NCBI GenBank assembly: GCA_013288545.1 | Contig: JABDBR010000002.1 | Coordinates: 1 to 64,000 of the forward strand | Length of the DNA: 64,000 nucleotides | Direction: 5' to 3' | Source: Nitrososphaerota archaeon | GTDB taxonomy: Archaea; Thermoproteota; Nitrososphaeria; Nitrososphaerales; Nitrosopumilaceae | Shown: positions 32 through 3,239 of the stretch, piece by piece | How positions within the stretch are numbered: position 1 is the first letter of the stretch | How the letters are laid out: each line of letters opens with the position of its first letter | The notes under the pieces: model-generated | The model's database searches: none | Seen by the model: the letters and a program-made list of their open reading frames with translations, nothing else | Told to the model about the DNA's origin: nothing | Position numbers and translations under genes: made by a program

Positions 32-373
32 TCAGGATAACCAAATGTAGTTGTAATCAAGTCTACTGATTTTGCATAGCGATATGTTATTTCTAAAAGC
101 GAATAATTCTCTAAGTGACAAATCAACTGTAAACGGGATTTTTATTAACGAAGAAATATTTCCGGGTTTTATTGAAATCATTGGTTCTCTAGAGAAAATA
201 TGAGGAGGTAAATCATTCTCTGCTTCAAACCTACAAGATATCTTGATGATTTCTAATACATGCTTCGAGTCGTTCTTAATTTCTACTCTAAATTCAGCTT
301 TTTCTAAATACGTAATGTTAGAGTGTGGGTCTATCCAACAGCCAGCTATTGAGAGTTCTTGTTTTGCACTCAT
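32..373 (-). CDS. Hypothetical beta-rich protein at the end of the Ubl operon
   Basis: This 113-residue protein of unknown family starts 48 bases after the stop of the JAB-E1 gene, on the same strand, so it is probably the last gene of that operon. Its sequence alternates short hydrophobic and polar stretches (for example AEFRVEIKNDS and SSLIKIPFTVD), which suggests a compact beta-sandwich. No signal peptide or membrane segment is visible. A role as substrate, adaptor or target-recognition subunit of the conjugation system would be a guess from position alone. The ATG at 373 is the only reasonable start. Confidence 0.6.
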   Translation of the reverse strand: MSAKQELSIAGCWIDPHSNITYLEKAEFRVEIKNDSKHVLEIIKISCRFEAENDLPPHIFSREPMISIKPGNISSLIKIPFTVDLSLRELFAFRNNISLCKISRLDYNYIWLS

Positions 374-421
374 ATTTCTATCACTTCATTCAAAATTTTA
401 CCAACCAATTTTTTATACAAA

Positions 422-1774
422 CTAATTCACGATCCTTCGCTTGTCTGTCATACCTCTTCTTTTTTGGCAAATACAATTAGCTTTAACAGGCGAATTTGTA
501 TTGATCATGAAACCATCTTTTAGCTCAATTTGTGTGAGACTGTCGTAATCAGTTCCAAACACTCCTAGAAGACCCAAAAGCTTGTTCAGGGCCATGCTGG
601 AAGCCATGGTTGTCATCGTTATGATACTTGGTTGTTTTTCTATGTCTTCGTAATATCCTTCTTTCGTAAGTGTATTTTTTTCTTTTTCTGATAAAGATTC
701 TTGCATGATCACTTTTCCATCAAGTGTTCCGGTACACCAAAGACATGCAGTATCAGGTGTAACCACTTGCACTTTCATTATTGCCTGATTGATTGATTCG
801 TCTTTGTTCATGAGAATTCTGCAACCTACGTCGATAAGCGGCACACAATATTGCACCGATATGTCGTTAAGTATGGACCTGCTTGAGAGATTATCAGTAC
901 ATGCAAAGATTACATCGGAATCAATTAGTACCGATACTATGTCATCTTTTATGACATCTGTCTTAAATGCTTCCACTTTTGTTTTCGAAAAGCTCTCGAT
1001 GTATTTTTTCAATACGTCCACTTTTGGTTTTCCAATATCACTTTCCTTTGATCCATAAACTCTAGATACGTTTGTCTTGTCTAGAATGTCTCTGTCCACC
1101 AGACGTATTTTTTTGATCCCCATTCTAGCAAGTTGTACTGCTAGAGGTGACCCTGTTCCACCTGCCCCAACTATGGTCACTGTTAGTTCTTGTAATTTTT
1201 TCTGGTTTTGTTTTCCAAGTACCCTCACTTGACGATCAAACTTAGAATCTACCACATATGGTCTTGAGTCAAAACCCACTCCTGGAAATTCTGACATGAT
1301 CTTTCCTACTATTTTAATGCTAGAAACCGGCTGTATTTTGCCTCCGTTGAATACAACTCCACATATTCCATGTCTGCTGAAGACAAAACTACCAAGTGGT
1401 ATGTCTACCAGTATTTGAGAGAGATTGGCAAAGATTCGCTTGTTGGATTTTTCATCTATCGGACTAAATCCTGAGGGATGTGAAAAGTTAGGATGTGTGT
1501 GCACAAATATCAAACTAGAGTTATTTGTATCTGCTCTGACAACGGACTCATTTATGAAAGATGAGCTTGGCTCTAACGAATGTTCACCGCTTCTATTCCA
1601 AGAATCATCTTTTGGTTTTAGCACATCGTTTACTAGAATCACAAGTCTTCCTCCTTTTGTCTTGTAAGAGGTTGCCAAAATGAAGCATCCATTCTCGCTT
1701 GGCGCATTACTAAACAAAAACTTGTTCAAATCTTCAAATAGATTTTTAGGAAAAATAACTTGCCACATTTTCAA
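422..1774 (-). CDS. JAB deubiquitinase-E1 (ThiF) fusion protein
   Basis: The 450-residue protein joins two enzymes of ubiquitin-like (Ubl) chemistry. Residues 1-160 are a JAB/JAMM isopeptidase: Glu27 in a PSENG segment, the VHTHP motif with His92 and His94, and Ser104-x-x-Asp107 form the zinc site expected to cut a Ubl from its target. Residues 175-440 are a ThiF/E1-type adenylating domain with the nucleotide loop GAGGTG (203-208), VDRD (227-230) and zinc cysteine pairs CLWC (344-347) and CIC (434-436). It should activate the Ubl encoded two genes upstream. The stretch between the first zinc pair and the following helix, where MoeB-type E1s carry their thioester cysteine, has none. The gene overlaps the E2-like gene by 4 bases. 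JAB-E1 fusions in such operons are known in bacteria, where related systems act against phage. Confidence 0.9.
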   Translation of the reverse strand: MKMWQVIFPKNLFEDLNKFLFSNAPSENGCFILATSYKTKGGRLVILVNDVLKPKDDSWNRSGEHSLEPSSSFINESVVRADTNNSSLIFVHTHPNFSHPSGFSPIDEKSNKRIFANLSQILVDIPLGSFVFSRHGICGVVFNGGKIQPVSSIKIVGKIMSEFPGVGFDSRPYVVDSKFDRQVRVLGKQNQKKLQELTVTIVGAGGTGSPLAVQLARMGIKKIRLVDRDILDKTNVSRVYGSKESDIGKPKVDVLKKYIESFSKTKVEAFKTDVIKDDIVSVLIDSDVIFACTDNLSSRSILNDISVQYCVPLIDVGCRILMNKDESINQAIMKVQVVTPDTACLWCTGTLDGKVIMQESLSEKEKNTLTKEGYYEDIEKQPSIITMTTMASSMALNKLLGLLGVFGTDYDSLTQIELKDGFMINTNSPVKANCICQKRRGMTDKRRIVN

Positions 1775-2160
1775 TCTCCTTTTAGTAATCTTTGCTGAAC
1801 ATACGACATGAAACTAGTAACACTGTCTTCCGATGGATTCCATGGTTTGCTATTATATGGATGATAGCTGAATCGTCTCCAACTTTTTCCTAAATGGTTT
1901 TCAAAAGTATCTGCTGCCTTTGGTTGACCATTATTCTTTAGCGTAAGTTTTGGGTCTACCCAGAACATATCAAATCCAGCATTGGGATAATACGGTGTAG
2001 TAAAAATTAGCAAATCAACTTTTTCTATATTATAAATTCCGGAAGGCAGTTGGTAGTCTTTGAAGACAATGCATATCTTTGGACTTTCCTCTACAATGTC
2101 ATAGGTATACCCTTGTTCTTTGAGGATCTCGAGATCCTGTATTAGCTCATCAGGTATCAT
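1771..2160 (-). CDS. Prokaryotic E2-like protein (Prok-E2_E type)
   Basis: The 129-residue protein resembles the prokaryotic E2 family E found beside ThiF, JAB and multiubiquitin genes. A TTPYYPNAGFDMFWVDP segment (54-70) matches the beta strands and proline-rich turn before the active site of the UBC fold. The carboxyl part has the W..FSYH....W.P..D pattern (94-112) that I associate with this family. Its only cysteine is Cys30, far before the usual catalytic position, so classical thioester transfer is unlikely unless Cys30 serves. It overlaps both neighbours by 4 bases (ATGA), implying coupled translation between the Ubl and the E1. Its partner role is inferred from family and context. Confidence 0.8.
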   Translation of the reverse strand: MIPDELIQDLEILKEQGYTYDIVEESPKICIVFKDYQLPSGIYNIEKVDLLIFTTPYYPNAGFDMFWVDPKLTLKNNGQPKAADTFENHLGKSWRRFSYHPYNSKPWNPSEDSVTSFMSYVQQRLLKGD

Positions 2161-2402
2161 CCGTATGGCACACTCTTCAGTATTGCATTGAAGTGAAGAC
2201 CATTCTCGATCTTAACCGACTGATCTGGCTCAATCTTCTGGCTATTCTGACCATGAATTAGAAACAAATCGTACTGGTTTGGATCAAAGCCTGCTTTTTC
2301 AAGGATCTGCCTGCCGGTAAGGGAATCTTCGGAAACGTGAATCTGCTTCTTGTTTACGAAGATTATTTTCTCATGTTCTTTGGTTTTGGATTCTGACTCC
2401 AT
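2157..2402 (-). CDS. Ubiquitin-like modifier (multiubiquitin-type domain)
   Basis: This 81-residue protein is the first gene of the conjugation operon. After a charged 12-residue start, residues 13-78 fit a single beta-grasp domain of the multiubiquitin family: IIFVNKKQI, a TGRQILEKAG helix, YDLFLIHGQ, and VKIENGLHFNAI. It ends in PYG, so a C-terminal glycine is already exposed and no processing seems needed before activation. There is one domain, not the tandem copies seen in some relatives. The gene is divergent from a CARF-like regulator with 93 bases between the likely start codons. Attachment to a protein or other target is expected from family knowledge; the target cannot be read from sequence. 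Confidence 0.82.
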   Translation of the reverse strand: MESESKTKEHEKIIFVNKKQIHVSEDSLTGRQILEKAGFDPNQYDLFLIHGQNSQKIEPDQSVKIENGLHFNAILKSVPYG

Positions 2403-2443
2403 CTAAATCGCTTAATGGTATATTCATGACTATAATATTTAAT

Positions 2444-2455
2444 CTTGTTTACAAG
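2444..2455. promoter_or_regulatory. Inverted repeat between Ubl operon and CARF-like gene
   Basis: CTTGT-TT-ACAAG is a perfect inverted repeat in the short divergent region shared by the Ubl operon and the CARF-like gene. It sits about 40 bases before each start codon, where a winged-helix regulator could control both. Operator function is an inference. Confidence 0.3.
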
Positions 2456-2495
2456 AATAAGGTTAATAAAGTTAAGAAACTTAGTAAAATTGACA

Positions 2496-3239
2496 ATGTC
2501 AGGAAATCTGAGAATACACATAGCACCGGTAGGCTTTGAATTTCTAAGGGTAACTGAGCCATTAATCAGAATGCAGGCAGACAAAGTATATTTGGTAACT
2601 TATCAGGAGGATGACAACGCTACAAGGTTTTTTACAAAAATAAGGAAAGAACTTTTACAAAAATACAGGCATATCAAAGTTGAAGAAGTCTTTATCGATA
2701 TTTGGGATCTTTACGAGTGCATTCAAAAATTTAGAGAAATCATTCTTTCTGAAAAGGGAAACCATGTCTACATCAACGTCTCCACTGGGACAAAGATTAC
2801 TGCAATTGCTGGAATGCTTTCATGTATGTTATGGGATGCAGCACCGTATTATGCACCAGTGAGATACCCTTCATCTAAAGAAATTGAAATTCCAACAGAA
2901 CAAGTTTTAGATCCAGAGTCATTGCCAGTTTATGGTATCAGAAAACCTACCAATGAAGAGATGCTAGTTTTATCATTATTGAATTCAGCTGGAGGTAAAA
3001 TAAGAAAGTCGAAATTGATTGAAAAGTTGGAAGATGAAGAAATAATTAAAATTAAAGACGAGACTGTAAGAGAATTAAGTGATGCGGCTAAACACAGCCA
3101 GCTTCGAGCAATTCTAGATCCTATGGAAAACAAATGGAAGTTTGTTGAAGTGGAAGCAAGTGGACGACGAAGTGAAGTATCTATTACAAAAAAAGGAGCA
3201 ACTGCATTGAAAATTTTTGGTGTAGAAAATTCTCAGTAA
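2496..3239 (+). CDS. CARF-like/winged-helix regulator (HFX_2341 / DUF6293-like)
   Basis: From the ATG at 2496 the protein has 247 residues. The longer frame from 2445 would run into the promoter area and adds an unlikely sequence. Residues 4-140 form a Rossmann-type sensor of the CARF superfamily: the HIAPVGFE strand-turn (8-15), the KVYLVTY strand (30-36) and the conserved VYINVSTGTK motif (91-100), which binds cyclic oligoadenylate or related ligands in family members. Residues 150-245 are a winged helix (NEEMLVLSLL and a wing ending in SITKKGATAL). It most resembles the archaeal HFX_2341-type regulators. No CRISPR array or cas gene is visible here. The divergent position suggests that it controls the Ubl operon; its ligand is unknown. 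Confidence 0.78.
   Translation: MSGNLRIHIAPVGFEFLRVTEPLIRMQADKVYLVTYQEDDNATRFFTKIRKELLQKYRHIKVEEVFIDIWDLYECIQKFREIILSEKGNHVYINVSTGTKITAIAGMLSCMLWDAAPYYAPVRYPSSKEIEIPTEQVLDPESLPVYGIRKPTNEEMLVLSLLNSAGGKIRKSKLIEKLEDEEIIKIKDETVRELSDAAKHSQLRAILDPMENKWKFVEVEASGRRSEVSITKKGATALKIFGVENSQ

What the first reader, a model, noticed from the sequence alone, without database searches (positions are those of the whole stretch)
32..2402. Complete ubiquitin-like conjugation operon in an archaeal defence island
Seen: four leftward genes, the first three overlapping by 4 bases, encode a one-domain Ubl ending in Gly, a Prok-E2_E-like E2, a JAB-E1 fusion and a small unknown protein. Established: related bacterial operons (multiubiquitin/Prok-E2/ThiF-JAB, and the Bil systems) conjugate a Ubl and some act against phage. 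Inference: this is an archaeal relative in a defence context next to Shedu and type I RM.
Basis: partly seen in the sequence, partly recalled or inferred. Interest (0 to 1): 0.75.

Follow-up and report, generated by a model that had tools for sequence, protein, structure and literature searches.

The report
Archaeal ubiquitin-like operon with TIR effector
An ammonia-oxidising archaeon carries a compact ubiquitin-like tagging operon of the recently described bacterial 'Bub' type; its last gene, which looked like a small unknown protein, is the cut-off front half of a TIR-domain protein (TIR is a common immune-effector domain), which suggests that this archaeal version pairs protein tagging with a TIR effector.

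Summary
The three enzyme and modifier genes are real: a one-domain Ubl (Multi_ubiq), a Prok-E2_E E2 and a JAB-E1 fusion. Their closest solved relatives are Citrobacter BubB and BubCD, so this is a Bub (bacterial ubiquitination-like) operon in a Nitrosopumilaceae archaeon; it is not a Bil system. The E2 has no catalytic cysteine. An almost invariant Ser-x-His stands there, as in other Bub E2s.

The fourth gene is not a small unknown protein. The window starts at the contig end. Related operons (Nitrosotenuis, two other Nitrosopumilales, one Thermoplasmata) encode here a 265-326-aa beta-sandwich plus TIR protein with the catalytic Glu. The window holds its first half, broken by a frameshift, and then the contig stops. 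In 400 genomes of the class, full two-domain matches were found only in Bub-carrying genomes; none lay next to the bacterial Bub operons examined.

A divergent CARF-HTH gene, a paralogue distinct from the genus' core copy, and a conserved intergenic element accompany the closest operons. Shedu, type I RM and an integrase at tRNA-Ser support a defence-island setting. Antiviral function is untested, and Bub itself has no demonstrated phage phenotype. Verdict: new variant of a known kind.

The parts
2157..2402 (-). bubA-like gene: single-domain Ubl, 81 aa, C-terminal Gly (VPYG) already exposed
   Evidence: Multi_ubiq PF14452 1.7e-10; family profile hits solved multi-ubiquitin proteins 9d59 8.8e-6 and 8u38; VPYG end in window, L020, L024 and L021
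1771..2160 (-). bubB-like gene: UBC-fold E2 without catalytic Cys; conserved S98-x-H100 ... W107-x-P109
   Evidence: Prok-E2_E 1.4e-29; Citrobacter BubB 9eae 2.4e-8, profile 2e-19; AlphaFold pLDDT 94.3, Foldseek 9eae_C TM 0.82; Ser in 26 of 27 homologues, Cys in one
422..1774 (-). bubCD-like gene: N-terminal JAB/JAMM peptidase fused to E1 (ThiF); C-terminal CxxC + CxC probable zinc site. Start TTG 1774 or ATG 1768
   Evidence: ThiF 3.7e-39; best PDB match Citrobacter BubCD 3.1e-31 over residues 7-400; invariant JAMM and adenylation residues
1..373 (-). 5' half of a beta-sandwich + TIR effector gene, frame broken near 108-110 (net 8 nt shorter than relatives) and cut by the contig end; TIR half not in the assembly
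   Evidence: tblastn of the L020 and L024 orthologues: frame -2 to base 110, frame -3 from 108 to 1; own-genome search finds only these two pieces; orthologues carry TIR_2 PF13676 above cut-off
2403..2495 (.). Divergent intergenic region with conserved element (GTTAATAAAGTTAA at 2462-2475), candidate operator/promoter
   Evidence: Aligned with L020, L024 and partly L021; the motif alone is not rarer than chance in the window when mismatches are allowed
2496..3239 (+). Divergent CARF (HFX_2341_N/Csa3-like) + winged-helix regulator, paralogue distinct from the genus' core copy
   Evidence: PF19810 7.7e-32, PF22665 8.9e-15; conserved divergent neighbour in L020, L024, L021 (52-77% identity); core copy elsewhere in G000:C1

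Best explanation
It is an archaeal Bub operon with its own effector. Shown: the JAB-E1 has an intact adenylation site and JAMM site, the E2 has a UBC fold without catalytic Cys, the Ubl ends in a free Gly, and in the related operons that could be read to the end in the window's lineage the next gene is usually a beta-sandwich protein carrying a TIR domain with the conserved catalytic Glu. Inferred: the E1 adenylates the Ubl C-terminus. The E2 then accepts it or hands it on without a cysteine thioester, the Ser that stands at the usual Cys site being the candidate acceptor. The Ubl is attached to one or more target proteins and the JAB domain takes it off again. The TIR protein is the output, an NAD+-consuming or signal-making enzyme whose beta-sandwich senses a partner and whose activity is set by Ubl attachment or by a tagged partner, much as type II CBASS uses an E1-E2 to prime its nucleotidyltransferase. 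The divergent CARF-winged-helix protein binds the shared intergenic element and controls expression. In this particular genome the effector gene is cut by the contig end and out of frame, so it may be broken here or misassembled.
For: Pfam and PDB matches; fold of the E2; invariant catalytic residues. Sandwich-TIR gene directly after JAB-E1 in L020, L024, L025 and L035. In 400 genomes of the class, 9 have an E2 over the cut-off and every genome with a match covering both domains (or, for G000, the front half) is one of them. TIR_2 above cut-off, invariant Glu (L020 E216), model with sandwich 18-124 and TIR 142-271 and Foldseek match to TIR-APAZ/Ago and TIR-STING. Frame analysis. CARF synteny and shared intergenic element. 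Sporadic distribution: E1 in 5 of 151 relatives and in no other genome of the genus, as for mobile defence genes.
Against: No biochemical or phenotypic data. Bub has not been shown to protect against phage (PMC13373217). Three related archaeal Bub operons do without the TIR gene (L022, L026, L027) and bacterial ones use other accessory genes. That the Ubl acts on the TIR protein is only a neighbourhood argument. The TIR gene in the window is incomplete. Iyer et al. 2006 (PMC1779556) read the Cys-less E2 as catalytically inactive.
Confidence: 0.55

Rival explanations
1. The Bub core (Ubl, E2, JAB-E1) works alone on host or viral proteins; the TIR protein is a separate defence gene that merely travels beside it on the same islands.
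For: Bub cores without TIR occur in archaea and bacteria. Other TIR genes also sit near these operons: a second TIR protein at L020:10576-11502 and a second sandwich-TIR at L024:191-967.
Against: The sandwich-TIR gene follows JAB-E1 immediately and on the same strand in four distantly related operons, two phyla included, overlapping by 4 bases in L024 and L025 and directly abutting in L020, and no complete copy was found without Bub in 400 genomes of the class.
Confidence: 0.3
2. The operon is a stress or housekeeping protein-modification system and not an antiviral one.
For: The EMBO J 2026 authors leave this open for Bub, noting DNA-damage-responsive regulators and no demonstrated phage protection (PMC13373217).
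Against: Patchy distribution, neighbours Shedu and type I RM, integrases nearby, TIR-domain effector.
Confidence: 0.25
3. The Cys-less E2 does not conjugate; the set serves sulfur transfer or is a non-covalent Ubl complex.
For: No conserved Cys in the E2; Iyer et al. 2006 call this E2 inactive.
Against: Conserved S-x-H...W-x-P signature, Cys in place of the Ser in one homologue, a JAB isopeptidase domain kept intact, no rhodanese; the title of Ye et al. 2026 on this pathway states protein conjugation (reference seen; paper not readable here).
Confidence: 0.08
4. In this genome the system is decaying: the frame break in the TIR gene is a real mutation and only the Bub core is functional.
For: About 8 nt fewer than in relatives at a conserved xGTN segment, giving a stop after 113 codons.
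Against: The break lies ~100 bases from the contig end of a MAG, where assembly errors are common; all upstream genes are intact.
Confidence: 0.35

Closest known systems
Bub (bacterial ubiquitination-like) operons, e.g. Citrobacter BubB/BubCD (PDB 9eae, 9ea4; Ye et al. 2026, Gong et al. 2025, cited in PMC13373217)
   Same: Ubl, Cys-less Prok-E2_E E2 and N-terminal JAB fused to E1, in the same gene order; best PDB matches of both E2 and JAB-E1; E2 fold TM 0.82
   Different: Archaeal host; accessory genes phosphotransferase and DUF6527 (seen in plasmid Bub operons) replaced by a beta-sandwich-TIR gene; divergent CARF-HTH instead of CapW, CapHP or CapKS
PolyUbl / inactive E2 / JAB-E1 / metal-binding protein operons (Iyer et al. 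2006 Genome Biology Table 1, polyUbl row, PMC1779556)
   Same: Same gene set and order of domains; E2 without Cys
   Different: Listed only in bacteria in 2006; usually two to three Ubl domains (one solo case); fourth gene a treble-clef-like metal-binding protein and not TIR
Bil (bacterial ISG15-like) systems
   Same: Ubl, E1, E2 and JAB DUB encoded together; anti-phage (known from literature)
   Different: JAB-E1 here is a fusion whose best match is BubCD; the E2 matches only BubB and lacks the Cys
Type II CBASS Cap2/Cap3 (E1-E2 fusion and JAB)
   Same: E1/E2/JAB machinery that tunes an effector enzyme; conceptual model for the mechanism proposed
   Different: No E1-E2 fusion and no CD-NTase; a Ubl is present; PADLOC E1-E2 models match only the ThiF part
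Caldiarchaeum / Asgard Ub-E1-E2-RING operons (PMC5654768)
   Same: Archaeal Ubl conjugation operon with JAMM enzyme
   Different: Those have RING E3, a separate Rpn11 and eukaryote-like E2; here no RING, JAB fused to E1, Cys-less E2
TIR effectors of SPARTA (TIR-APAZ/Ago) and TIR-STING
   Same: TIR fold match (8i87_G, 9lmq_A)
   Different: Here TIR is fused to an N-terminal beta-sandwich and encoded in a Ubl-conjugation operon

Membership tests
Bub operon | JAB-E1 fusion most similar to BubCD | tested here: met
   phmmer 3.1e-31 over residues 7-400, next best eukaryotic E1 5e-15
Bub operon | Prok-E2_E/BubB-type E2 lacking the catalytic Cys | tested here: met
Bub operon | Multi_ubiq-type Ubl encoded upstream of E2 | tested here: met
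   PF14452 1.7e-10, order Ubl-E2-JAB/E1
Bub operon | Phosphotransferase and/or DUF6527 accessory genes of many bacterial members (probably not defining) | tested here: not met
   Present in L098, L099 (both), L038, L100, L101 (DUF6527); absent from the archaeal loci of the window's lineage
Bub operon | Covalent conjugation of the Ubl to proteins | not testable with these tools
   Needs biochemistry; Ye et al. 2026 not held in the library
Bub operon | Associated DNA-damage regulator (CapW, CapH+CapP, CapK+CapS) | tested here: not met
   Neighbour is CARF (HFX_2341_N + DUF6293_C); many bacterial Bub operons also lack the Cap regulators
TIR effector (fourth gene) | TIR domain match above curated cut-off in orthologues | tested here: met
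   TIR_2 28.5 and 30.5 bits, cut-off 28; fold match to TIR domains
TIR effector (fourth gene) | Catalytic Glu of NADase TIRs | tested here: met
   Invariant Glu (L020 E216) in the (R/K)E(V/M)xxA motif; assignment by position, no coordinates inspected
TIR effector (fourth gene) | TIR domain present in the window's own copy | tested here: inconclusive
   Contig ends inside the linker
Bil system | E2 with catalytic Cys and separate E1 and DUB genes | tested here: not met
   E2 Cys-less; JAB fused to E1
Anti-phage defence system | Protection against virus infection | not testable with these tools
   Only island context: Shedu, type I RM, integrase at tRNA-Ser

The most novel reading that the evidence does not exclude
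A three-layer archaeal immune circuit: Ubl attachment by a thioester-free E1/Cys-less E2 switches on a TIR enzyme whose nucleotide product is read by the adjacent CARF regulator, which in turn induces the operon, so that ubiquitin-like tagging, TIR signalling and CARF sensing are joined in one cassette of about 4 kb.
Probability: 0.1. Interest if true: 0.85.

Novelty: new variant of a known kind. Interest (0 to 1): 0.6.

Why it matters
Bub is the newest ubiquitin-like pathway and its biological role is open (PMC13373217). An archaeal branch with a dedicated TIR gene gives the pathway a concrete candidate output, makes 'what does Bub conjugation control?' directly testable, and links ubiquitin-like conjugation to TIR immune enzymes in one operon in ammonia-oxidising archaea. 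It also corrects a reading error: a supposed small unknown protein is half of an effector gene cut by a contig end.

Tried and rejected
Bil/CBASS membership: PADLOC E1-E2 models hit only the ThiF core and PDB best hits are BubB and BubCD. A 113-aa protein as a genuine small fourth component: rejected by frame analysis against orthologues. TIR half on another contig of the MAG: none found up to E=10. att repeat of the tRNA-Ser inside the contig: none beyond 10-11 bp chance matches. IMG/VR scan with the E1 profile gave only ThiF-core matches, no viral Bub operon. Sandwich-TIR on plasmids: no match at 1e-5. Phylum-wide E1 search: only G000 and G041 matched over the full JAB-E1; the other listed matches cover little more than the ThiF part. 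Phylum-wide sandwich-TIR search: only the window's own fragment at 1e-15. Rfam over 1-30000: only the tRNA. Papers on the Bub mechanism (Ye 2026, Gong 2025) are not held, so statements on Bub chemistry rest on sequence here.

Full report
WHAT IS THERE. The window begins at the first base of contig C2 of a 1.39-Mb, 85%-complete metagenome-assembled genome. Its relatives in the same family include a Candidatus Nitrosotenuis MAG and a Nitrosopumilus MAG, so the host is a Nitrosopumilaceae ammonia oxidiser. Three leftward genes encode a one-domain Ubl (2157-2402, Multi_ubiq 1.7e-10, ending VPYG), an E2 (1771-2160, Prok-E2_E 1.4e-29) and a JAB-E1 fusion (422-1774, ThiF 3.7e-39). The nearest solved proteins are Citrobacter BubB (2.4e-8; with the family profile 2e-19) and BubCD (3.1e-31), well ahead of eukaryotic E1s. 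The AlphaFold model of the E2 (pLDDT 94.3) matches BubB at TM 0.82 and more weakly Atg10 and Ube2G1. The Ubl was not folded; its assignment rests on profiles.

CATALYTIC RESIDUES. In eight JAB-E1 homologues the JAMM residues (E27, H92, H94, S104, D107) and the adenylation site (GxGGxGS, D227, R238, K251, D287) are invariant, and C344/C347/C434 (plus C436 in seven of the eight) look like a zinc site. The E2 has no conserved Cys. Ser and His of the motif F-S-x-H...W-x-P are conserved in 26 of 27 E2s, and the one exception (a Dehalococcoidia MAG, L040) has Cys exactly at the Ser position. Iyer et al. 2006 noted the same Cys-less E2 in bacterial polyUbl operons and took it for inactive (PMC1779556). 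The pattern here, one Cys swapped for the Ser, makes that Ser the likeliest acceptor or catalytic residue. This is inference.

THE FOURTH GENE. The reported 113-aa protein (32-373) has no Pfam match. In the closest operons the gene after JAB-E1 encodes 265-277 aa: an N-terminal beta-sandwich and a C-terminal TIR_2 domain (28.5 and 30.5 bits, cut-off 28). Aligned to these, the window reads the sandwich in one frame from 373 to 110 and in another frame from 108 to 1 (55/123 and 21/36 identities to L020), where the contig ends in the linker before TIR. Relative to its orthologues the window is about 8 nt short at the break. No further piece was found in the MAG up to E=10. Whether the break is real or an assembly error near a contig end cannot be decided here. 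The L020 orthologue folds as sandwich (18-124) plus TIR (142-271); the TIR part matches TIR-APAZ/Ago and TIR-STING structures, and the catalytic Glu is invariant (L020 E216).

HOW TIGHT IS THE TIR LINK. The gene order Ubl-E2-JAB/E1-sandwichTIR is found in L020 (Nitrosotenuis), L024 (JADFLH010000063), L025 (JAEHKV010000075) and a Thermoplasmata MAG, L035. In 400 genomes of the class, nine have the E2 above cut-off, and matches covering the whole sandwich-TIR protein (or its front half, for the window's genome) occur in four genomes, all of them Bub carriers. Drawing four of 400 at random into those nine has a probability near 1e-7 (my arithmetic; the window's genome was chosen for Bub, and without it the value is near 5e-6). 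L022, L026 and L027 carry Bub without it. In the bacterial loci examined (L033-L052) it was never next door, and it has no match on plasmids. Plasmid Bub operons carry phosphotransferase and/or DUF6527 genes in that place. So the sandwich-TIR gene is a recurrent component of one archaeal lineage of Bub, not of Bub at large.

REGULATOR AND SETTING. A divergent CARF-winged-helix gene (2496-3239) is conserved beside the operon in L020, L024 and L021 (52-77% identity). Nearly every genome of the genus has one core copy of this family, and the window's genome has the core copy plus this one. The 80-90-bp intergenic region shares TTAACTTTATTAAC-(C/T)TTATT in three of the four, with partial conservation in L021. 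Bacterial Bub operons use other regulators (CapW, CapH+CapP, CapK+CapS; PMC13373217). Shedu, type I RM and a YgjP-like peptidase follow within 13 kb, and an integrase gene abuts tRNA-Ser at 20.3-21.7 kb. L020 also has an integrase-like gene nearby (by reading the sequence). E1 hits occur in 5 of 151 relatives and in no other genome of the genus.

PHYLOGENY. In the E1 tree the window groups with Nitrosotenuis L030 (98/89) inside a four-row Nitrosopumilaceae clade (99/98). The sandwich-TIR carriers L036 and L035 branch near it in an eight-row group of weaker support (81/84) that also holds a Chloroflexota sequence. A second archaeal Bub lineage (G041, L045) lies apart among bacterial sequences. 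This suggests transfer between bacteria and archaea, not a single archaeal origin, and leaves direction open.

MECHANISM. Shown: intact adenylation and JAMM sites, UBC fold without Cys, Ubl with free terminal Gly, TIR effector gene in the orthologous position, a separate CARF paralogue. Inferred: thioester-free transfer through the E2 Ser, reversible tagging of a target, TIR output tuned by tagging, CARF control. I put the identity (archaeal Bub operon) at about 0.95, the fourth gene as a sandwich-TIR gene at about 0.95, and the claim that Ubl tagging tunes the TIR protein at about 0.4.

KNOWN OR NEW. Bub operons are known in bacteria (544 operons counted, PMC13373217). In 2010 no archaeal E2-like protein had been detected (PMC2948915), and the archaeal systems reported since, of the Caldiarchaeum/Asgard type, are RING-containing and different (PMC5654768). 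None of the papers I could read mentions an archaeal Bub operon or a TIR gene in one; the two primary Bub papers could not be read, so prior description there is not excluded. I therefore rate it a new variant of a known kind.

Noticed in passing
window:20292-21693: Tyrosine recombinase gene directly downstream of tRNA-Ser on the same strand; bases 1-21.5 kb look like the tRNA side of an integrated island whose far end lies beyond the contig (no att repeat found inside).
   Followed up: partly
L020:10576-11502: A second TIR protein (TIR_2 8.9e-16, followed by hydrophobic segments) lies just after the sandwich-TIR gene of the Nitrosotenuis Bub operon.
   Followed up: no
L024:191-967: A second, diverged sandwich-TIR protein (TIR_2 1.6e-13, CAP12-PCTIR 9.1e-8) on the same 5.9-kb contig as a Bub operon.
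   Followed up: no
L040:2-361: The E2 of a Dehalococcoidia Bub operon has Cys (FCWSP) where all other E2s have the conserved Ser: a natural test of Ser versus Cys chemistry.
   Followed up: no
L025:7779-8030: Ubl ending in ...FGW and, in L006, ...RGSQ: these need trimming after Gly, unlike the window's Ubl, and suggest a maturation role for JAB in those operons.
   Followed up: no
window:2462-2475: Conserved TTAAC-rich element between the divergent CARF and Ubl genes, shared by three genomes with 60-77% protein identity.
   Followed up: partly
window:6601-7158: YgjP-like metallopeptidase between Shedu and HsdR, overlapping the end of hsdR.
   Followed up: no
window:3336-4121: 261-aa protein without Pfam match between the CARF gene and Shedu; possibly another defence gene.
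   Followed up: no
L023:7699-9555: A much diverged E2 plus JAB-E1 pair in another Nitrosopumilaceae genome (G255), grouping with a Spirochaetaceae sequence on long branches.
   Followed up: no
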